A DNA stretch of 64,000 nt. It comes from Termitomyces sp. T153. Taxonomy: Eukaryota; Basidiomycota; Agaricomycetes; Agaricales; Lyophyllaceae. The notes under the pieces were generated by a model. It was not told the origin of the DNA. It was given only the letters and a program-made list of their open reading frames with translations, and did no database searches. Position 1 is the first letter of the stretch, and every line of letters begins with the position of its first letter. The translations under genes were made by a program, and so were the position numbers. Location: the NCBI GenBank assembly GCA_018296165.2, contig JACKQL020000025.1, positions 434,001 to 498,000 of the forward strand, read 5' to 3'. Below are positions 23,148-64,000 of the stretch, piece by piece.

Positions 23148-24289
23148 TGTCACGACCCATTCCCCGAAACCCCGCACATTGCCCATCAACCCCAAAACCC
23201 CAAAAAACCCCCAACGCTCCGCCAAACCTCCGCCCATGCCCCGCGCCTAGTTCGGCTAACTCCGACGCCTCCCCAGCTAACTCCGACGGCCCCCTGGCCA
23301 ACTTTGGTGCCTGCCCCGCAGCCACTGACACTTACCCTGGGCTTCCCGAACCCCGAGAACCACCCCCGCTGTTCCCGATCTTCGCCACCCATCATCAACT
23401 CAACACCCTGGTTCCTCCGACCTATTCCGGAGTATCATGACAACCTCGGGGCAACCCACGTTCTCCAATGATCCCATCAACGTATCAGCGCGGCATGATC
23501 TTCGATCACAACCGACACCTGCCCACTCCGTCAAGCCCTGCCAAGCCCCACCGCCACAGCCGACGTACCCCGAAGTCCTCTGGTAGTCAGTATATAAGTC
23601 ATCAAGTAGCTCCTTGTACTCTAGTCTTGATATTGCTTAACGTTACCTATGGTCTGATTGTTTCCTTTTCGTGTTTTGTGTCTCATTCTCCTTACTCTCA
23701 GTCTCCCGGTCTTATCTCAGTCTCCTGGTCTTATCTCAGTCTCCTGGTCTTGTCTTGTCTCCATTTCGTTATTGTTCTTGTTGTTGTTTCATATCTCCAC
23801 TCGAATCTACTCTTGTTCCATATTGTCTCGTCTGACGCTGTCTCGGTGACTTTGTCCGACCATTGTGCCCAAGTCTTCATCAACCCTAACGACCTCACGA
23901 ACTCCGCGATTACAATTATGAACCCCGACACTCCTTTACCAGGTCTGAACCTCACTCTTCGCTCGGTCCTGGACTCCATCAGCTCCAAATGATCTCCCAT
24001 CAAACCCCGGCTCCGTTCCCATTGATCACACAGCCACCTACTCCCTTGCTTCCGCGAATCTCCCATACGGCCTTCTGCCTGAACCCCGCCAAGACCGTCT
24101 CGTCTCCTCACAATCCGAATTCTCTGGACCTTCCCGGATCTGTCTGGATCACATCCCCCCAACTACCCGCACAAGCCACCAGGACCCGGAACGCCTTCGA
24201 GTGTTCGGTTACAAGTGCAAGGGGATCACGCCCGCCTAGTAAGGACTCGCCCAGTGCAGCTGAGCCCCCGAGGTCAGCGGGACCTGACA
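23148..24289 (+). repeat. E3 5' LTR
   Basis: TGTCACGACCCATTCC...GACCTGACA. Inverted ends TGTCA/TGACA. Related LTRs: 28,125-29,283, 45,191-46,310, 52,829-54,849 (interrupted) and 60,052-61,039. Confidence 0.9.
23591..23634 (+). promoter_or_regulatory. E3 LTR promoter: TATA box and predicted RNA 5' end
   Basis: TATATAAG at 23,591-23,598, then AGTCTTGATATT at 23,623-23,634, 32 bp downstream, where initiation is expected. The same pair is kept in LTR 28,125 (TATA 28,571), 45,191 (TATA 45,637), D (minus, 53,418-53,425) and E7 (minus, 60,639-60,646). The 12-mer is the exact complement of the primer-binding site. Confidence 0.7.
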
Positions 24290-24290
24290 T

Positions 24291-24302
24291 AATATCAAGA
24301 CT
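24291..24302 (+). promoter_or_regulatory. E3 primer-binding site, self-priming type
   Basis: AATATCAAGACT, one base after the LTR, is complementary over 12 of 12 bases to AGTCTTGATATT inside the LTR (23,623-23,634). E8 has the same pair (52,816-52,827 with 53,382-53,393, minus). No TGG start as for tRNA primers. Confidence 0.7.
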
Positions 24303-26782
24303 CTGCCTTACCCCGTCCGTGATGCCCGCATTATCTCCATACACGCGATCAAATAACTCCGATGTCTATGGTCTACCCGTGCCTGGAAACCCTTCTGATT
24401 CATATGGCCCTGCCCAACTTGCCGAGGGACATTGAGTCGCAGATCCAACACCAAACGTCCCCTCCGCTCCAGTTACTTCCATGCAATGGCTCCCCCACGG
24501 ACACCCTCCCCAACTCACACCCAACTCCCAACCCCTCGCGCAACCGTCAAATCATCTTCCACCCCACTCTTACACTCTCTGCCAACTCCGCTCTCTCGCG
24601 CAAAATTGACCCCGACATCACCCAAAGAATAACATCCTAAAGCCTGGCGACCATCCGATCAAATGAGCAACAATGTCTCTGGCACCGCGCCAACCCTCCG
24701 ACCAACAATAACGCCAACCCGCCGCAGAACAGTCACCCACTGCGCAAGGATCGCCAGCTACGAAGGGACCACTGAGAACGCGCTTCCCGGAAGCCCGCCT
24801 GTGGACCCACCGACCCACCAGCAACCACAGGACAAGGACCTCAGACCTAGGCTACGCTCCAACCCCAGGACCTGCTTCCGGACCTCGATCAATTCGGCCG
24901 TCACCTCCGCCCAACAAATGAAGGGGCCCCAACACCCCCGACCCGACCCCGACAACCCCAGAACGAAACCAAAACATCCACGAGCCTCTAGATGTTAATA
25001 GGGAGAACCACGGCACCCCACTCCCGACAAGGGACAACTCCAGACCACGCCGCTATTTCACCACCCTCCCCCACACAATCCAGAGCCCCCGACAATGAGG
25101 ACCCTGGATGCCAAAACCCCCCGCATGCCACCCCGAGCCTAAACCCCACCACCAGACTACGCCACCTCCCACGAAGGAATCCCCAGCATAGGAGCCACCC
25201 CGAACTAACTATAGGAAAAAGGACCCTATACAAAGTAGTTCCCTAAGTACTCTAAATTCGCTGACATGTTCACATAAGGGAGAGAGAAGCCCCACCATCA
25301 TCCAGAAAACGACGATCGGCCGTTTAAGCAACCCGAAAACCCAAAGGGCACACGCTCCGATATTCTCAAAGGACCTCCCCCACCCAGCTCGACGACCCAA
25401 ACAACCCCGCGCCAGCCCAAAACTGTCCCACCCAGACCCCTCAAACCCTTCAACCCAGCTCTGGACCCTGGTGACACGACTCCAGGGCCTCCGCTCCAAC
25501 CACGACATCTGACCAAGAAAACTCATGGCGCCAGCTCAACAATGATGCCCTGGTAGCCCCAACTCCGCGGCAGAGATCACCCCCCACTCCGAATCCTGCC
25601 CCTACACCGGAATATGTCTGCCCGAACAGGGACCACATCATCGGAGCCTCCAGAAAAGCGAGCAGTGCCTCTCCCCACTGCCACCCCCACACTTGCAACA
25701 ATCTCCGGGCCGCTCCGGAACACGAATGAAGAGTAGCCTCGACCCTGCCGCATCTCCCGGGGGGCCCCACTCCAGTGCCTCCCCGCAGCTGACCTCCCCG
25801 CCGCCCCAGCAACCGTGAACAACCAACAAATCCCCACCGAGTGACCCTTGTGCCGACTCCGGGACCCCCCACTTCCTCCCCGATGAAGGAACCACTGACC
25901 CCCGGACCCCGAACTCAAGGAAGTATCAGAAATACGTAAGACCCCCTTTGTCCGCCTCGGGCTTACCTTTGGTCAGGAGAGCAATATCACGTAGATGATC
26001 CGGAACCCCAAATTTTGGCCCCGGACCCAAAGGAACTGGTTGGGACTGATCACCCCGCATCCCGCTCCCTCGGTCATCAACACTCCGGAGCACACCAAAG
26101 CGCCACTCGAAGCATGCCCACCCACAGACGCAACACTCCAGAACATGACCCTGACCCAGACCAACTATACCGCGAGGACGAACCTCGCCTCACCAAACCC
26201 CGCCAATGAAGAAGGCCCCGCCGCCCTCGCCACCGGTGCCGGCATAAGGGCCAGACCATGGGAAGACCCCCATTACCCCCCGCCAACCACACTGCGAAGA
26301 CAACTAAAACCCCGAACCCGTTGGGCACCGCGAAAGATTCGGAGGCCCACCCTCCAATACCAATACGGCACACGTCCCCGCCATCAACAAAAGAAAACCC
26401 TTACACCCCCAGTCGGAATTTCCGAGAATCAAACTCAATGACACCGCCCAAAATGCCGGGAACCCCACCAGAGAACTCCCACCACCCCCGCCGGACCTCG
26501 GGAGCCCTCCTGCAATGCCCCGCCCCGTCCCGACAAACCCCGGGACTAGCCAGTGCAGACGGCACTAGCGGGCGCAACCCCCGCCTCTGGACTCACTAGG
26601 GATTCAACTCCCTCTCACACCCCTGCGTGTTTCGCTTACTTCGCCCTCATACAAAACTAAAATCTCACTTCACATGCCCAGGGACCAAGAAAGGACATGT
26701 TCGCATACAAAAAAATTATATATACAATAGGCGGGGAAGGCAGCAAGTCCGAGAGCAACAAGAAACAAGGCCCACACCCATC
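24303..26782. other. E3 middle region without gag or pol
   Basis: GC-rich and CpG-rich. Frames are open on both strands (for example 24,663-24,998 plus, 25,995-26,441 plus and 25,577-25,918 minus), but the products are Pro/Thr/Ser- or Gly/Arg/Trp-rich and look like composition effects. No CCHC, DSG, YLDD or integrase motif. The first 150 bp match the E8 leader (52,828-52,680, minus) loosely. TATATATAC at 26,716-26,724 lies just past the end of the antisense gene. Confidence 0.5.
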
Positions 26783-27913
26783 TCACTCCCCCCCCGGACC
26801 CCCCGGCAACCCAACCCCCAGGTCGACCTCCATCTGGGCCCGCACCACCGCTAAGATCTCCGCCAACCCCGGCAATGCCTCCCCCGCATCGGCCGCCACC
26901 TCCCACCACGACCCCGGGGCCACCGCATTGCGTCGCCGATGCCCCGCCAACAACCTCTCCAATCGTGCCATCCCCTGCTGCAACTCCGGAGGCTGGACTG
27001 CGGACCCCTGCATCAACCCGTCCTGAATCGACGCGAACGCCGCGGAGGCACCATCTAAAAGGACCCGATGTTCCCGCACCCAGCCTAAACCCAGAAAATG
27101 AACCGTCAATAACAAACGGAGGAAAGGGAGACAACTCACGAAGGATCCCCACGTGACCCGAGGCGGCCTCGTTGGCCAACCAATCCTCCCTCCGCCTCGC
27201 CGCCTCCAACTCCACCCACAACGCATCCCCCTCCGGAACTCGTCCCCGCCCCTCTGCTTCCCCCGCGGGCTGCCCCTCCACCTGCGCCAGACGCTCCCGC
27301 AAACCCCGCACCTCTAGCGCTCGCTCTGTCGCCACGCGCACCAAAGTATTCCTCTCCCGCTCCATCACTTCCTTCTCCATCCGCGCCGCGTCACGATCCT
27401 CCCTCGCCCGTCAGAGCTCACCCTCCCGTACTGCCAACGACGTCGTCAAGGCCTCCACCTGCTTGCGAAGAAAGACCTGCGTGATTGAAGGAATCGGCAT
27501 GGGGGGACTCAATGACCGTTCCGAGGGGACGCCCAGGACAGGAGAAAAGAGGGAGGACTCCGGAGGCCCCGCCAACAACTCGCGCCCACGCAGCCTCTTG
27601 CTGGGTCCCGCCCCCGAGGGCGGGGAGGCTCGACGCTTCCCCCGAACCATTGCCGAGGGCGCCCCCTTCCCCTTTGGCAACGCAGGACGAAACTTGGTCC
27701 GTTTCGGGACCCCCGGAAAATCCACCACTACTACCACGGACGATTCTACAGGAACCCCGTCAACCATCCCGAAAAGAAAAGTCGACAACACTTACGACTC
27801 CGGTCCCTAACGCTACCCCGGCGCCGACGCTCGAACTCCTCACCCCCACTGTCATACACCACCACCTCGTCTAAATCGGCAGGAGAAACCACTGGAACGC
27901 TGGGGGAAGACAT
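26783..27913 (-). CDS. E3 antisense spliced gene, short form without zinc cluster
   Basis: Exons 27,913-27,796, 27,745-27,140 and 27,084-26,783. Introns 27,746-27,795 (GTAAGT...GTAG, 50 nt) and 27,085-27,139 (GTGAGT...TTTAG, 55 nt). Phases fit and give about 341 residues. N-terminus MSSPSVPVVSPADLDEVVVY; an NLS-like KRRASPPSGAGPSKRLRG; coiled coil (VREGEL...EVRGLRERLAQVEG); conserved block REDWLANEAASG, WVREHRVLLDGASAAF and LLAGHRRRN. One in-frame TGA (27,411-27,413), preceding CGG and explicable as CGA decay, would truncate it. It lacks the six-Cys exon of E7. It runs against the element's transcription. Function unknown; a regulatory or chromatin role is only a guess. Confidence 0.65.
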
Positions 27914-28111
27914 GACGAAATTTGGGAAGCCCCGGGGCACGCCCAAAGCTTTTAATTGATTGAGGAGAACCCTGACAAAATGGCGGCCGCGCTTCAACTT
28001 CGTCTCCCACGCCACTATCACTCGCTGCGGATTGATCAATATTACTCGGCTTCGACTCCCACGCCCCACCGATCCCCGTCCTGCCCCCGCGTCTCGAAGG
28101 GTCTCGACGCT

Positions 28112-28124
28112 GAAAGGGGGGTGA
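28112..28124 (+). other. E3 polypurine tract
   Basis: GAAAGGGGGGTGA immediately before the 3' LTR. The same GGGGGGTGA lies before the LTRs at 38,088 (plus) and 61,039 and 54,849 (minus). It should be the second-strand primer site and sets E3's orientation as plus. Confidence 0.8.
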
Positions 28125-29283
28125 TGTCACGACCTGTTCCCCGAAACCCCGCACATCGTCCATCAACCCCCCGAACCCCCAAAGGGACCCCCAACACTCC
28201 ACCAAACTTCCGCCCATGCCCCACGCCTACTTCGGCTAACTCCGACGCCTCCCCGGCTAACTCCGACGGCCCCCTGGCCAACTTCAGTGCCTGCCCTGCA
28301 GCCACTGACACTTACCCTGGGCTTCCCAAACCCCGAGAACCACCCCCGCTGTTCCCGATCTTCGCCACCCATCATCAACTCAACACCCTGCTTCCTCCGA
28401 CCTATTCCAGAGTATCACGACAACCTCGGGGCAACCCGCATTCTCCAATGATCCCATCAACGTATCAGCGCGGCACGATCTTCGATCACAACCAACACCC
28501 GCCCACTCCGTCAAGCCCCGCCAAGCCCCGCCGCCACAGCCGACATACCCCGAAGTCCTCTGGTAGTCAGTATATAAGTCATCGAGTAGCTCCTCGTACT
28601 CTAGTCTTGATATTGCTTAACGTTACCTATGGTCTGATTGTTTCCTTTTCGTGTTTTGTGTTTTGTGTTTCGTGTCTCATTCTCCTTACTCTCAGTCTCC
28701 TGGTCTTATCTCAGTCTCCCGGTCTTATCTCAGTCTCCCGGTCTTGTCTTGTCTCCATTTCGTTATCGTTCTCGTTGTTGTTTCGTATCTCCACTCAAAT
28801 CTACTCTTGTTCCATATCGTCTCGTCTGACGCTGTCTCGGTGACTTTGTCCGACCATTGTGCCCAAGTCTTCATCAACCCTAACAACCTCACAAACTCCG
28901 CGATTACAATTACGAACCCCGACACTCCTTTACCAGGTCTGAACCTCACTCTTCGCTCGGTCCTGGACTCCATCAGCTCCAAATGATCTCCCATCAAACC
29001 CTGGCTCTGTTCCCATTGATCACACAGCCACCTACTCCCTTGCTTCCGCGAATCTCCCGTATGGCCTTCTGCCTGAACCCCGCCAAGACCGTCTCGTCTC
29101 CTCACAATCCGAATTCTCTGGACCTTCCCGGATCTGTCTGGATCACATCCCCCCAACTACCCGCACAAGCCACCAGGACCCGGAACGCCTTCGAGTGTTC
29201 AGTTACAAGTGCAAGGGGATCACGCCCGCCTAGTAAGGACTTGCCCAGTGCAGCTGAGCCCCCGAGGTCAGCGGGACCTGACA
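28125..29283 (+). repeat. E3 3' LTR
   Basis: Full-length partner of 23,148-24,289 with TATATAAG at 28,571-28,578. It contains one more TTTTGTGTTTCGTG-type repeat unit near 28,650-28,680 than the 5' LTR. Confidence 0.9.
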
Positions 29284-43467: not shown

Positions 43468-43663
43468 GTTCCCAGGGTGTTGGCGGAGGTGGCAAGGAAG
43501 TGGGAAGAGTGGCTTGCCAATGAGGTGGCCTTGGGGCAGAGGGGAATTCTCCATGAGTTACTTCATTCTCTCCCTGATTCCTTCTCTGACCTAATGAGCT
43601 AGATTGGGCCAGAGAGCACCTGATTCTCCTTGATGGAGCATCTGTGGCACTTGCATTGATCCA
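43468..43663 (+). pseudogene. Fragment of the family Z antisense gene
   Basis: Reads EEWLANEVALGQRGILHEL, an intron-like stretch with CTGAC and TAG near 43,590-43,602, then LILLDGASVALALIQ. It matches E7's REEWLANEAASGRRGVLR / EHRILLDGASAALGSIH, with the intron at the same place. CpG-poor copy wedged between two P2 LTR pieces. Confidence 0.75.
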
Positions 43664-55063: not shown

Positions 55064-56030
55064 ATGTTGTCTTCCACCTACTCCCCAGCAGCAACCAGGT
55101 CCTTGTCCATGTCATCCTAGCCATCCTCCTCCAAGGACTCTGAGGGGCATTGAGATTGTTGCTGGGTCAAGGCAATGTACCATAGTTATGAGTGTGATTC
55201 TGTTCCACATATTCCAGAGTACTGACTGGGCCTCCATAGAGTTATCTGTGGCCATGGCAGGTCCCTCAGGGCTTTTGTTGGGCATGAACATAGCACAGTC
55301 ATTGGTGGGGGCAGTCCCCCCCTCATGTTCCAGGTCTGGGCTTGGTCTGGAGGTGGTCCAACCCATTCCTGTGGGTTTGAGGGTGGTTTAGGCAGAGGTG
55401 ACACTGGAGCAGTTTGCAGAGGCTGGGAGCAGGCAAGGGGTCCCCCCATCCTTGAGTAGTGCCAGGCAGTGGCCCTGGTGAGTGACATGTGTAGTTCTTT
55501 CCTCCTCTGAGCTAATCCATGTTCACAGTGCATATCCTGTGTTCGAAGGGAGGAGCAGTGCAAATTCAAGGAGCCCACACTGGGGTTGTGGCAGGATACC
55601 TTGGTATGCCTTCCATGTTGTTTGCAGCATAAGAAGTGCTCTGTCACATCAAGTTGGTGTGCCACTTGTGTTGCCACCAAGCAGGGTTGGGATCAGGCAT
55701 GGGTTGCAAGTCAGTTTGATTTTCACTCAATTCTTTTGTACTGACATGACATGGCACATTAGGCTAGGGAGCACCAGATCCTTCTCAATGGGGCATCAGC
55801 GGCACTTGTATCAATCCACAATAGGCTCTTGAGGATGCCTGGGGATCTTTTCCTGGAGTTGGGCCAGGGGATTGGGCAGATGGGCTGTTTGTTGGCAGGG
55901 CACTAGCAGAGGACCACAGCAAATCACAGGACATGGTGGGAGGTGGCAACGGATGTGGGGGAGCCACTCCTGAAGCACCCAGAGGTCTTGGCAATAGTGG
56001 TGGCTCAGTTGAAGGTCTCAAACCCCCAGT
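55064..56030 (+). pseudogene. E9 antisense zinc-cluster gene, decayed
   Basis: Aligns with the E7 gene from the LTR outward. Start ATG 55,064; exon 1 has stops (TAG at the word SCHP*); intron 55,478-55,528 (GTGAGT...TTCACAG, 51 nt) at the same position as in E7. Exon 2 keeps all six Cys with exact spacing: CISCVRREEQCKF ... VCLPCCLQHKKCSV. The coiled-coil part is deleted near 55,700. The last exon reads AREHQILLNGASAALVSIH (about 55,762 on) and a W(W)E-like end near 55,940. CpG is nearly absent compared with E7. The E9 pol is missing to the right. Confidence 0.75.
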
Positions 56031-56741: not shown

Positions 56742-56777
56742 CCTGCCTTTGGCACAGGCCTGTAGCTCTTGCTTCAT

Positions 56778-57040
56778 CCCAGACCCAACCTCACTTCATT
56801 TGGTTAGGTCCTCGTTATTCTACTCAATGCTTAGTCCCAGACCCAACCTCACTACATTCAGTTAGGTCCTTGTATTTTGTCAACTCAATGCTTCAACCCA
56901 GACCCAACCTCACTACATTTGGTTAGGTCCTTGTATTTTGTCAACTCAATGCTTCATCCCAGACCCAACCTCACTACATTCAGTTAGGTCTTTGTATTTT
57001 GCTAACTCAATGCTGAGATCCAGACCCAACCTCAGTTTGT
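56778..57040 (+). repeat. Minisatellite, about 61-bp unit, 4.4 copies
   Basis: Units start at 56,778, 56,836, 56,897, 56,958 and 57,019 with CCCAGACCCAACCTCACTAC and contain GGTTAGGTCCTTGTATTTTG. A diverged unit lies at 57,215-57,250. Confidence 0.8.
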
Positions 57041-60051: not shown

Positions 60052-61039
60052 TGTCAGGTTCCGCTGACGACGGTGGCTCAGTACACTGGCGAGTCCTTAC
60101 TAGGCGGACGCGATGTCCTGCGTTTATAACCAGGCGCCCGGGGTTGGAGCGGAGGTGGGGAAGGCTTGCGAGGGGCCCCTAGGGATAGCGGCCCGAGTAG
60201 GTCCGGAGTGATTCAGAGGGGTCTAAGACCGGAGGTACTGGTCGTTGACCCGGGGTGGGTGTCGGAGCTCGTTAGCGGACGCACGAGGGGATTGCGGGGT
60301 AGGCGGAGGCTTCTCGGCTGTTGGGGGGGCGGGGTCGGTTGGATAGGGGATTACCGGGGCTTGATGGGTTCCGGGGTGAGCGGGTAGTGAGGCCCGGGGT
60401 TGTCGTTAGGAATGTTCAGGTTGTGGCGCGTGCGCGGAGTTCGTACTGATGTAGGGAGCAAGGGAACTTCAGGGGAACAAAGGAAATATGTACAGTCGAG
60501 ACGAGACGGAGACGAGACGAGACTGAGAAAAGATAGATTCGAAACCTAGGAACAGAAATACAGACGAGACGAGAGACGAAACATAGGAAACCGGTAAAAT
60601 GTAATATCAAGACTAGGGTTCGAGGAGTTATTCTATGACTTATATACCAACTACTGGGTGCCTCCGAGGGCGGCGGATGTGATGGCGGGGGTCAACGGGG
60701 CTGTGCTGAGTCGACGGGTGTCGGGTACAACCCAAGTTCGGGCCGCGGCGGTATTCTGATGGGATCAGTTGGGGGCGCGGCCGCTCCGGGGCGTCGTGGC
60801 ACTCCGGGATGGGTCGGGTGAACTAGGGTAGGGGGTCGGGGACGTATGACGTGTCCAGGAATGGTGGGGGAAGGTTTCAAGGGGGTGTTGATGGCTACGG
60901 ATAGGGAGTTGCCGTCGGGGTTTGCCGGAGAAGCGTCGGAGTTGCCCAGTGTGGGCGTCGAAAGTGTGGGCGGGGTTCCGGGGAGTTATTGGGAGGGGTT
61001 GGGGGCCATGTCTAGGGATCTAGGGAGCGGGTCGTGACA
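60052..61039 (-). repeat. E7 3' LTR (988 bp)
   Basis: Minus strand TGTCACGACCCGCTCC...GGAACCTGACA. TATA at 60,639-60,646 and AATATCAAGACT at 60,603-60,614 on the plus strand, i.e. the predicted RNA 5' end on the minus strand. Rich in CpG. Confidence 0.85.
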
Positions 61040-61051
61040 TCACCCCCCCTT
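61040..61051 (-). other. E7 polypurine tract
   Basis: Minus strand GGGGGGGTGA run next to the LTR; fixes the element's orientation. Confidence 0.75.
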
Positions 61052-61253
61052 CAGCGTCGAGACCCTCGAGACGCGGGGAGCGAGTCGGGCATCGGTAGGG
61101 TGTGGGAATCGAAGTTGATCAATATTGATCAAACCGCAGCGAGCGGCGGCGGCGTGGGGAAGGAAGTCGAGGTGCGGCCGCCGTTCGTCAGGGGCCCCTT
61201 CTTGATTCATTAAAAAGGGGTGGACGCACCCAGGAGCCCGCCAGCTTGTTGCG

Positions 61254-62949
61254 ATGTCTTCTTCAGCTTATTCTCCCACAGCATCTAGGTCGCCGTCCCC
61301 ACCTTCCCAGCCGTCGTCCTCCGAAGATTCAGAGGGTCGCCGAGATCGCCGTCGGGTCAAGGCGATGTACCGTAGTCGTGAGTGCGGCCCGTTCTATGTA
61401 TCCCAGAACACTGATTGTCCCCTCGCAGAGTTGTCCGCGGCCGTGGCTGGTCCCTCAGGGCCACCGTCTGGTGCGGATGCGACGCAGCCCCCGGCGGGCA
61501 TGGTTACTTCTACGCGTTCCAAGCCTGGCATTCGCCCGGGGGTGGTTCGACTTGTTCCAGAGGGTTCGAGGGTGGTGCAGGCGGAGGTGACGCCGGAGCA
61601 GTTTGCCGAGGCGGTGGGTTGGGCGAGGGGTCCCCCCACCCTCGAGTGGTGTCAGTCGGCGGCCCCGGTGAGTGGCCACTTAGTTTCGTGTCTCCCGGAC
61701 CAACATGCCCTTGCAGTGCGCGTCTTGTACCCGACGGGGGGAGCAGTGTGAGTTTGAGGAACCGGCATCGGGGGTGCGGCGGGACACGTCGGTGTGCCTC
61801 CCGTGCCGTTCGCGGCACGAGAAGTGTTCCGTCACCCTGAGTTGGCGGGCCGTTTGCGTCGCGGTGGAGCAAGGGTGGGATCAGGGTTGGGTCGCAGCAC
61901 AGCTGGAGGAGGGACGGAAGGGCAGGGTGTCGGGGAGGGGCTCCGGGGCTGGGGAGGGGGAACGGGTTAGCGCGTCTGTCATGAAGGTGGGCCCTCCGCG
62001 GGGTGGGCGGAAGGAGGGGGCCCCTTCCAGGCAGGAGAAGGGGAAACGGAGGGCGTCCCCTTCACCCGAGGCGGGTCCCAGTAAGCGGGCGCGGGGCGAG
62101 CAGGTAATGGGGGGCCCCCCCGGTTCCGCGGTGTATTCCCCTACGTCCGGAGTCCCCGTTGAGCAGTCCGCGGACGGGTCGTGGTCGGTTGCGGAGGCCT
62201 ATCTGCGGCGTCGGGTAGAGGGCTTGGAACGGTTGTTGGTCGCACGCGAGGGGGAGATTCAGGGGGTACGGGAGGAGAGGGACGGGGCTCGACGGGAGTT
62301 AGACGGGGTTCGGAGGGAACAGGACCTGGCGCGGAAGGACAAGGACGTCGCCGTCGGGACTGCCACGGAGCGATTATCGCGTCTGCAGGAGTTGGAGGTG
62401 CGGACGGTGCATTTGCAGGCGCGGGCGGAAGCGGCGGAAGTGGCGGCGCAGCAGGCAGGGGGCCCAGGGGCGCGGGAGACCCGGCAGGGTTCCGGCGCTG
62501 GGGAAGTCCGGGCGGCGGTGGAGAGGGCGCGACGGCGGGAGGAGTGGCTCGCCAACGAGGCGGCCTCGGGCCGGCGAGGAGTGCTTCGTGAGTGGTTGTC
62601 CCGCCTTCTTTTCCCTAGCGTTGACTCGGGTTCCACAGACTGGGCCCGGGAGCATCGCATCCTTCTCGACGGGGCGTCGGCAGCGCTGGGGTCCATCCAC
62701 GATGGGTTGGCGAGGATGCCCGGGGACCTTCCGCCGGAGTTGGGCCAAGGGGTAACGCAGATGGGGCGTCTGTTGGCAGGGCATCGGCGGAGGGCGACGG
62801 CAGACCCCGGGGCGTGGTGGGAGATAGCGACGGACGTGGGGGAACCGCTCCCCGAGCAACCCGAGGTTCTGGCGGCGGTAGTGGCGCAGTTGGAGGTGTT
62901 CATGGTGGGAAGGGTAGCGGGGTTAGGGTCGGAGGAGGAGGGAGGGTGA
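61254..62949 (+). CDS. Antisense spliced gene of E7: Zn2Cys6-type cluster, coiled coil, conserved C-terminal block
   Basis: Exons 61,254-61,667, 61,717-62,587 and 62,639-62,949 give 531 residues. Introns are 61,668-61,716 (GTGAGT...TTGCAG, 49 nt) and 62,588-62,638 (GTGAGT...CACAG, 51 nt); phases 0 and 1 fit. Residues 1-45 are Ser/Pro- and Arg-rich. Cys 139, 142, 149, 165, 168 and 175 form CX2CX6CX15CX2CX6C, the spacing of fungal Zn2Cys6 DNA-binding clusters. NLS-like KRRASPSPEAGPSKRARG lies near 246-266 and a coiled coil near 297-370. The C-terminal block is EEWLANEAASG, REHRILLDGASAALGSIHDG, LLAGHRRR and WWEIATDVGE. The gene runs opposite to gag-pol; its start is 214 bp from the 3' LTR. Copies in E3, E9 and 43,468-43,663 share the introns. 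DNA binding is inferred, not shown. Confidence 0.75.
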
Positions 62950-63179: not shown

Positions 63180-63998
63180 TCAGTCCCGGGGGTTCTGGGG
63201 CTTGGCGGGATTCCGTCGGTGGAAGTCCCGGATTTCGTCGGGGGCTCTGTCAAGGTTCCTTCGGGGCTCCCACGTATTGTCCTCAGGCCCGTAGCCCTTC
63301 CATCGGACCAAGTACTGGAGTCGGCCGCGAACTACCCGGGAGTCGAGGATCTCGTCGACCTCGTAGTGGTACTCGTCCTCGACTTCGACGGGGGGCGGTC
63401 GGCTGGGGCGTTGGCCGGGGAAGGGGTCTGGAGCGTGCCTTTCAAGGAGTCGAACGTGGAATACAGGGTGGAGGCCCTTTAGACCCGGAGGCAGGTCGAG
63501 TTTGTAAGCGTGGGTGGAGACCTTCCGGAGGATCTTGAATGGACCGAGGCGTTTGTGGTCGAGTTTGATAGAGGGCCTCCGGGTCTTAAGATTTCGTCGG
63601 TCGAGCCAGACCAAGGTGCCGGGGGGCCAGTCGGGGGTCGGCTGGCGGCGGGCGTCGGCATGCTTGGAGTAGGCTTGGTTGGCGGTGTCGATCTCGTCCC
63701 GGAGGAATTGGTGGAGGGACCGGAGGTCCTCGGCGACTTCGTGGGCAACGTGGGAGGGGATGTCCTTGAGGGACAGTGTGAGTCGGGGATTGTAGCCCTT
63801 GTTGGCGTAAAAGGGGGAAACTCCGGTGGCGGAATGAGGCGTGTTGTTGTAGGTGAATTCGGCGAGGGGGAGCTCCGCGCGCCAGTCGTTCTGTAAATAG
63901 TTAACGTAGAGGCGAAGGTACTGTTCTAACGTCTGGTTTACGCGCTCGGTTTGCCCGTCGGTTTCCGGGTGATAGGCGGTAGAGAGGCTGGTCTTGAT
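63180..63998 (-). CDS. pol: E7 pol C-terminus: integrase core end, GPF/Y module and chromodomain
   Basis: Open from the window edge (first full codon at 63,998) to the stop at 63,180, 272 codons. It begins [20 protein letters not shown], which holds the catalytic Glu, then [20 protein letters not shown], the C-terminal module [20 protein letters not shown] and [19 protein letters not shown], and a chromodomain [20 protein letters not shown] and [14 protein letters not shown]. The end is [18 protein letters not shown]. No stop or shift. Role: cDNA integration, with the chromodomain probably directing it to marked chromatin. The earlier Asp residues are beyond the window. Confidence 0.9.
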
Positions 63999-64000
63999 CT

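What the first reader, a model, noticed from the sequence alone, without database searches (positions are those of the whole stretch)
61254..62949. A retrotransposon family carries a spliced antisense gene with an exact Zn2Cys6-type cluster
Between pol and the 3' LTR of E7, on the opposite strand, lies an intron-containing gene with CX2CX6CX15CX2CX6C, an NLS-like stretch, a coiled coil and a conserved C-terminal block. In E9 (55,064-56,030) the six Cys and the first intron survive although the rest has decayed, which suggests past selection on the cluster. The second intron keeps its position in E3 and in the fragment at 43,468. Antisense extra ORFs are known in some plant LTR elements, but I know of no described fungal element with a Zn2Cys6 protein. 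It could bind the element's own LTR, repress competitors, or guide expression or targeting.
Basis: partly seen in the sequence, partly recalled or inferred. Interest (0 to 1): 0.92.

Follow-up and report, generated by a model that had tools for sequence, protein, structure and literature searches.

The report
Jumping element's reverse-strand zinc gene
In a fungal genome that is likely from a termite-farmed mushroom, a large family of jumping elements carries on its reverse strand a gene, predicted to be spliced, whose protein sequence has been kept by selection and holds a zinc-cluster-like module with its two halves in swapped order; the protein would likely bind DNA and help the element control itself.

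Summary
E7 is a young Ty3/gypsy chromovirus (LTRs 1 mismatch and 3 gap positions apart in 988 bases, 5-bp TSD CTGTC). The protein is 514 aa with C-X2-C-X6-C-X15-C-X2-C-X6-C at residues 122-158. Of the 50 best pol tails (of 142), 47 have this gene beside them on the opposite strand.

Among 58 copies, non-CpG variants shared by three or more copies show dN/dS 0.23 (bootstrap 0.16-0.33); single-copy variants show 0.94. So the protein was selected while the family multiplied.

New: the module is not a canonical Zn2Cys6. Its first half matches the second half of Pfam Zn_clus and vice versa. Swapping the halves raises the score in 3 of 3 subfamilies; the same swap lowers it in 4 of 4 canonical clusters tested.

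Against: a Zn-less form of the gene, as in pol-less E3, is in at least 40 places; both structure models are poor; no RNA was seen. Antisense extra genes are known in plant elements and in fungal Boty. Best reading, inferred: an element-encoded DNA-binding regulator.

The parts
60052..61039 (-). 3' LTR of E7 (element sense strand is minus); its partner lies outside the window at window-scale 69873-70857
   Evidence: 99.6% identical pair, 1 mismatch and 3 gap positions; 5-bp TSD CTGTC on both sides
61040..61253 (+). leader between polypurine tract/LTR and the antisense ATG; candidate antisense promoter and 5' UTR
   Evidence: 75% identical between E7 and E3 (five shuffles 51-56%), against LTR 59%, exon 1 55%, intron 0 55%, intron 2 62%, last exon 65%; exon 3 not compared. 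Promoter role inferred.
61254..61377 (+). exon 1 of the antisense gene (ATG)
   Evidence: GTGAGT..CAG; donor GT in 46 of 58 copies, AT in 12; removed in several database models; an intron of 50 nt there in E3
61429..61667 (+). exon 2
61668..61716 (+). predicted intron 1, 49 nt
   Evidence: frame-shifting length; GT in 57 of 58 and AG in 58 of 58 copies
61717..62587 (+). exon 3
61717..61827 (+). six-cysteine module C-X2-C-X6-C-X15-C-X2-C-X6-C, residues 122-158, halves in swapped order relative to Pfam Zn_clus
62038..62100 (+). basic stretch KGKRRASPSPEAGPSKRARG, nuclear-localisation-like
   Evidence: sequence; K231, R233 and 241-245 invariant in the 6-sequence alignment; NLS role inferred
62194..62583 (+). 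predicted coiled coil, residues about 281-410
   Evidence: sequence; long helix in the model of homologue P0089 (residues 255-331, block pLDDT about 70-97)
62588..62638 (+). predicted intron 2, 51 nt
   Evidence: in E3 the two flanking exons are in different frames with 55 nt between them; GT in 45 of 58, AT in 13. In E7 itself it is also open in frame (549 aa).
62639..62949 (+). exon 4 with conserved C-terminal block and stop
63180..64000 (-). 3' end of pol (integrase C-terminus, SH3_Tf2-1, chromodomain); continues beyond the window
55064..56030 (+). decayed copy of the gene in E9
26783..27913 (-). E3 copy of the gene, Zn module deleted, one in-frame stop, introns at 27795-27746 and 27139-27085
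23148..29283 (+). E3: pol-less LTR element with TSD TAGAC that carries the Zn-less antisense gene next to its 3' LTR
   Evidence: LTR pair 94.4%; TSD and no match to E7 gag/pol pieces at E below 0.1
43474..43661 (+). fragment of the gene across intron 2

Best explanation
A Ty3/gypsy chromovirus family carries, between pol and the 3' LTR and on the opposite strand, a conserved gene whose predicted splicing gives a protein that likely enters the nucleus, would dimerise by a predicted coiled coil and likely binds DNA through a Zn2Cys6-like module with its two halves in swapped order. Most likely it recognises the element's own leader/LTR DNA and adjusts the balance of sense and antisense transcription of the family. 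The antisense introns would survive because the packaged genomic RNA is the sense strand, on which they are not introns (general knowledge, not tested). Shown: position, conservation, splice signals, selection, order of halves. Inferred: expression, nuclear entry, zinc and DNA binding, self-regulation.
For: Gene beside pol on the opposite strand in 47 of the 50 best pol tails, the 50 taken from 142 rows. Shared non-CpG variants dN/dS 0.23 against 0.94 for singletons in 58 copies; the pol tail gives 0.13 and 0.72 in 56 copies. The other two frames of the same strand give 2.71 and 1.96. One opposite-strand frame gives 0.27 because its third positions coincide, but it holds 7 stops in E7. 32 of 59 other copies have no stop or frameshift in the coding exons (531-residue model); 29 of them also keep all six Cys and the splice ends of introns 1 and 2. 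Intron positions shared with diverged E3 (two) and E9 (one). Halves match the opposite halves of the PUT3 cluster (weak, E 0.6) and of Pfam Zn_clus; swapping gives one continuous match, 25.4 to 31.5, 18.7 to 25.9 and 13.6 to 19.6 bits; in four canonical clusters the swap costs 11-15 bits. In all 47 full motifs the second half keeps H at position 8 and K or R at position 10. The leader is the most alike of six stretches compared between E7 and E3.
Against: No RNA or protein evidence. The Zn-less form of the gene is in at least 40 places, E3 included, so a derivative can spread without the module. Structure models are poor (mean pLDDT 60, pTM 0.31 and 0.33), and Foldseek with the module model finds no zinc cluster. 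Eight invariant Cys also allow two separate Cys4 zinc sites. No binding site was shown. The swapped test strings were built by hand and differ from the natural ones by 2-3 residues of flank.
Confidence: 0.5

Rival explanations
1. Anti-silencing factor: the protein binds its own family's DNA to counter host cytosine methylation or heterochromatin, not to tune transcription as such.
For: The family decays mainly at CpG: 290 of 340 possible CpG transitions in the exons are seen in three or more copies, so host methylation is likely heavy. Introns 0 and 2 have a CpG across the donor (C|GT) and have lost GT in 12 and 13 of 58 copies, while intron 1, without it, lost it in 1.
Against: No domain of a demethylation or chromatin enzyme in the Pfam scans. 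Decay also hits this family, so protection is at best temporary.
Confidence: 0.2
2. Integration or virion accessory protein: it binds gRNA, VLPs or target chromatin and steers insertion or nuclear import.
For: Basic stretch and coiled coil would fit a tether; PMC7264820 proposes accessory roles for antisense extra genes.
Against: The element already has a chromodomain for tethering and a zinc-knuckle match in gag (E 5e-4, below Pfam cut-off). An antisense-strand gene needs its own transcript, unusual for a virion protein (general knowledge).
Confidence: 0.12
3. The antisense transcript or the DNA, not the protein, is what matters, for instance as a source of dsRNA.
For: PMC7264820 discusses regulatory antisense RNA in other elements; the leader is well conserved.
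Against: Codon-level constraint in the true frame, not in the two other frames of that strand; the one opposite-strand frame that echoes it has 7 stops. No shared nonsynonymous non-CpG change in the module.
Confidence: 0.05
4. The module is not a Zn2Cys6 derivative but two independent Cys4 zinc sites (C116, 122, 125, 132 and C148, 151, 158, 168) that resemble it by chance.
For: Eight invariant Cys in 6 sequences of three subfamilies; the canonical order is not met; the models do not recover the fold.
Against: The halves match the two halves of known clusters at residues other than Cys too, and a swap improves the Pfam match in all three subfamilies tested.
Confidence: 0.25

Closest known systems
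Antisense additional ORFs (aORF-3R) of plant Gypsy elements: Grande gene23, RIRE2, Retand, PvRetro13 (PMC7264820, parts 1 and 2 of 3 read)
   Same: Between pol and 3' LTR, antisense, in most copies, nuclear protein reported for Grande, function unknown
   Different: Here a fungal chromovirus, predicted introns, and a Zn2Cys6-like module; none of the plant ones is described with it in the text read
Boty-like elements of Botrytis cinerea with antisense gene brtn (Zhao et al. 2011; title seen in the reference lists of PMC8365987 and PMC4227169, of which I saw passages only)
   Same: Fungal gypsy element with gag-pol ending in a chromodomain (PMC4227169 passage) and an antisense extra gene
   Different: The brtn sequence and domains were not available here; all rows listed in the protein searches are Termitomyces, so no relation could be shown or excluded
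Fungal Zn2Cys6 transcription factors (Pfam PF00172; PUT3)
   Same: Six Cys with compatible spacing; a basic half C-X2-C-R-x-R-H-x-K-C and a half C-X2-C-x-R-R-G-x-x-C-x-F; coiled coil downstream (a common TF layout, recalled)
   Different: The two halves are in reversed order; 15-residue linker; two more invariant Cys; sits in a retrotransposon
Permuted treble-clef zinc sites (PMC3197139, passages)
   Same: Zinc-binding halves in exchanged order are known for another zinc fold
   Different: Treble clef, not Zn2Cys6; no link to retroelements in the passages seen
HTLV-1 HBZ (recalled; the HTLV antisense promoter in the 3' LTR is mentioned in PMC7264820)
   Same: Spliced antisense gene at the 3' LTR of a retroelement coding a nuclear regulator (recalled; works-like only)
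   Different: HBZ is a bZIP protein (recalled); no bZIP match here; unrelated

Membership tests
Zn2Cys6 binuclear cluster (PF00172) | Six Cys with C-X2-C-X6-C-X5..16-C-X2-C-X6..8-C spacing (range recalled) | tested here: met
Zn2Cys6 binuclear cluster (PF00172) | Score over Pfam's cut-off of 21 bits | tested here: inconclusive
   Whole protein 17.9; module alone 25.4 in window, 18.7 and 13.6 in two other subfamilies; 3 of 25 family members match at E up to 0.1, best 0.014
Zn2Cys6 binuclear cluster (PF00172) | Basic DNA-contact half first, second half after it (one continuous profile match) | tested here: not met
   Halves reversed; continuous match only after swapping
Zn2Cys6 binuclear cluster (PF00172) | Two zinc ions bound; CGG-type DNA recognition | not testable with these tools
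   models of pLDDT 60 without ligands
Ty3/gypsy chromovirus | gag, PR, RT, RNase H, IN in that order, C-terminal chromodomain, LTRs and 5-bp TSD | tested here: met
Antisense aORF between pol and 3' LTR | Antisense to pol, 3' of pol, in most copies | tested here: met
   47 of the 50 best pol tails
Antisense aORF between pol and 3' LTR | Transcribed from its own or an LTR antisense promoter | not testable with these tools
   no RNA data held
bZIP antisense regulators (HBZ) | bZIP domain | tested here: not met
   no bZIP in Pfam scan at E up to 1

The most novel reading that the evidence does not exclude
A retrotransposon family encodes, antisense and spliced, its own sequence-specific transcription factor built on a circularly permuted Zn2Cys6 domain. 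A pol-less derivative (E3) spread after losing the zinc module and now makes a coiled-coil-only competitor, so a two-party contest between an element's regulator and its dominant-negative parasite would be readable in one genome.
Probability: 0.3. Interest if true: 0.87.

Novelty: new variant of a known kind. Interest (0 to 1): 0.73.

Why it matters
Antisense extra genes of LTR elements still have no known function (PMC7264820). Here one has more than a hundred natural copies in one genome, a selection signature, a recognisable DNA-binding type of module and a natural module-less form, so its function can be tested directly. A permuted Zn2Cys6 would also show that this large fungal domain, whose halves are near-symmetric (recalled), tolerates circular permutation, and that ordinary scans miss such proteins: none of the 21 Zn_clus hits of this genome coincides with a family place listed.

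Tried and rejected
Cys survival in E9 as proof of selection: rejected, because CpG decay spares these codons. Shared CpG variants as a selection test: rejected, saturated (dN/dS 0.92, 183 nonsynonymous and 107 synonymous alleles). Introns read as coding gave shared dN/dS of 0.72 (8 N, 4 S) and 1.47 (11 N, 3 S), consistent with introns but small numbers. Structure prediction of P0089 and of the 66-aa module: both poor; the fold searches, run with the module model only, were empty of zinc clusters; no weight given. Profile search of the PDB with the 25-sequence family: 16 chains at E 0.019-0.85, mostly in the coiled-coil part. NCBIfam, three proteins: none. CGG/CCG sites in the leader: the CGGCCG at 61175-61180 is kept in E3 by eye in the alignment, but in GC-rich DNA this was not pursued. 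Host capture as origin: no non-Termitomyces or named host homologue in the listed rows, but only 120 of 179 rows were listed and the candidate pools were capped; whether each listed protein lies in an element was not tested. Papers: ten searches, seen as listings, showed no fungal element with a Zn2Cys6 antisense gene and no permuted Zn2Cys6 among the rows listed; I opened PMC7264820 (parts 1 and 2 of 3) and passages of PMC8365987, PMC4227169 and PMC3197139. The library lacks most subscription papers.

Full report
What was checked. The window lies in a 72-Mb genome (G000:C25:434001-498000). All listed protein relatives of the gene are from Termitomyces (101, the 120 listed of 179, 6), so the genome is likely a Termitomyces; it is unnamed.

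The element. E7 runs from an LTR at 60052-61039 to one outside the window (69873-70857); the pair is 99.6% identical over 988 bases, with 1 mismatch and 3 gap positions, and 5-bp target-site duplications CTGTC flank it. Its sense strand is minus. Retrotrans_gag, a zinc-knuckle match below the cut-off, protease, RT, RNase H, integrase, SH3_Tf2-1 and chromodomain make it a Ty3/gypsy chromovirus. The pol frame of E7 is in two open pieces; some other copies have one open frame of 1394 codons.

The antisense gene. It starts 214 bases beyond the inner edge of the 3' LTR and ends before pol. E3, a diverged relative, has introns of 50 and 55 nt where E7 has introns 0 and 2 of 51 nt each. In 58 copies the donor GT and acceptor AG are kept in 46 and 57 (intron 0, one copy gapped), 57 and 58 (intron 1), 45 and 58 (intron 2). 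The donor losses at introns 0 and 2 are all to AT, where the window copy has C|GT, as CpG decay would give. Against: in E7 introns 0 and 2 are also open in frame. No RNA was seen; splicing is predicted.

How general. A six-frame search of the genome scored 81 of 2945 candidates and gave 103 matches; a search with a second subfamily gave 241 matches from 84 of 4078 candidates. Both are lower bounds. For the first subfamily I had 60 copies as loci; L011 is the window copy itself and L053 was misaligned at its 5' end, so 58 were counted. Of 59 (L053 kept), 32 have no stop or frameshift in the coding exons.

Selection. Variants were counted by codon effect against the window copy, with CpG changes set aside. 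Variants in one copy only, which are mostly later than insertion: 59 synonymous and 125 nonsynonymous, dN/dS 0.94 (bootstrap 0.69-1.24). Variants in three or more copies, which mostly arose in lineages that went on to multiply: 70 and 33, dN/dS 0.23 (0.16-0.33); Fisher p 4.7e-9. Variants in exactly two copies lie between (non-CpG 0.79). The two other same-strand frames give 2.71 and 1.96. One opposite-strand frame gives 0.27 because third positions coincide; it has 7 stops in E7. The pol tail in 56 copies behaves alike: 0.72 and 0.13. In the module (residues 122-158) shared variants are 6 synonymous and 0 nonsynonymous, singletons 7 and 11 (Fisher p 0.016). Shared alleles are not independent of relatedness, so these are estimates.

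The module. Pfam Zn_clus is reached by the whole protein only at 17.9 bits (cut-off 21), through the first half of the module and the second half of the profile. The PDB comparison, weak in itself (E 0.6), shows the same crossing with PUT3: CLPCRSRHEKC pairs with the first half, CASC...CEFEEP with the second. I then scored the natural module and the module with halves exchanged for three subfamilies: 25.4 to 31.5, 18.7 to 25.9 and 13.6 to 19.6 bits, in each case from two stretches to one continuous match. The same exchange in four canonical clusters of this genome (L001, L002, L005, L008, of the six found in L001-L008 by a regular expression) went from 42.2, 41.1, 36.2, 35.0 to 31.1, 26.5, 24.9, 23.1 and from one stretch to two. 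The exchanged strings were built by hand and are 2-3 residues shorter than the natural ones. The simplest reading is a circular permutation, for instance by tandem duplication and loss of the outer halves (inferred). In 47 full motifs the linker is always 15 and the second half always keeps H at position 8 and K or R at position 10. Eight Cys, not six, are invariant across three subfamilies in a 6-sequence alignment, so two Cys4 sites remain possible. AlphaFold models were poor and decide nothing.

The exception. E3 (23148-29283, TSD TAGAC) has no match to E7 gag/pol pieces at E below 0.1 but keeps the antisense gene by its 3' LTR, without the Zn module and with one in-frame stop. The T112 protein P0096 has the same junction. 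A 146-base probe across it matched 40 places at 92% or more, E3 included, from 40 scored of 263 candidates. Whether the other 39 also lack pol was not tested. So a Zn-less form has spread. This speaks against the module being needed in cis; it fits a protein acting in trans, or a competitor that keeps only the coiled coil (inferred).

Mechanism. The leader between LTR and ATG is more alike between E7 and E3 (75%; five shuffles 51-56%) than exon 1 (55%), intron 0 (55%), intron 2 (62%), last exon (65%) or LTR (59%); exon 3 was not compared. With a basic stretch, a coiled coil and a DNA-binding type of module, the best-supported reading is a regulator that acts on the element's own leader or LTR. 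I put this at 0.5; anti-silencing is the main functional rival.

Known ground. [quoted passage not shown] Zhao et al. 2011 on Boty brtn was seen only as a title in reference lists. So an antisense gene in a fungal element is not new; the zinc module, its swapped order, the selection result and the module-less form were not found in the listings of the ten searches made. PMC3197139 (passages) mentions permuted treble clefs, not permuted Zn2Cys6.

Noticed in passing
window 23148-29283: E3 is a 6.1-kb pol-less LTR element (LTRs 94.4% alike, TSD TAGAC) that keeps the antisense gene minus its Zn module; the deletion junction is in at least 40 places of the genome, E3 included.
   Followed up: partly
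window 61378 and 62588: Donor sites of introns 0 and 2 lie on a CpG (C|GT) and have become AT in 12 and 13 of 58 copies, while intron 1 without CpG lost its donor in 1: CpG decay itself would switch splicing off.
   Followed up: partly
window 61040-61253: Conserved leader across E7, E3 and E9, with a TTGATCAA palindrome in E7 and E3 and a CGGCCG kept in E3.
   Followed up: partly
G000:C83:92706-96238: Three canonical Zn_clus hits lie within 3.6 kb on one strand, a tandem group or one multi-cluster gene.
   Followed up: no
window 56770-57034: Tandem array of about 61-bp units with a CAGACCCAACCTCACT core.
   Followed up: no
window 63179-62262, minus strand: A 306-codon stretch without stop runs antisense to the gene's 3' half; likely a by-product of GC-rich codons.
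   Followed up: no
residues 116 and 168 of the protein: Two further cysteines flank the six-Cys module and are invariant in six sequences of three subfamilies and kept in 58 of 58 copies.
   Followed up: partly
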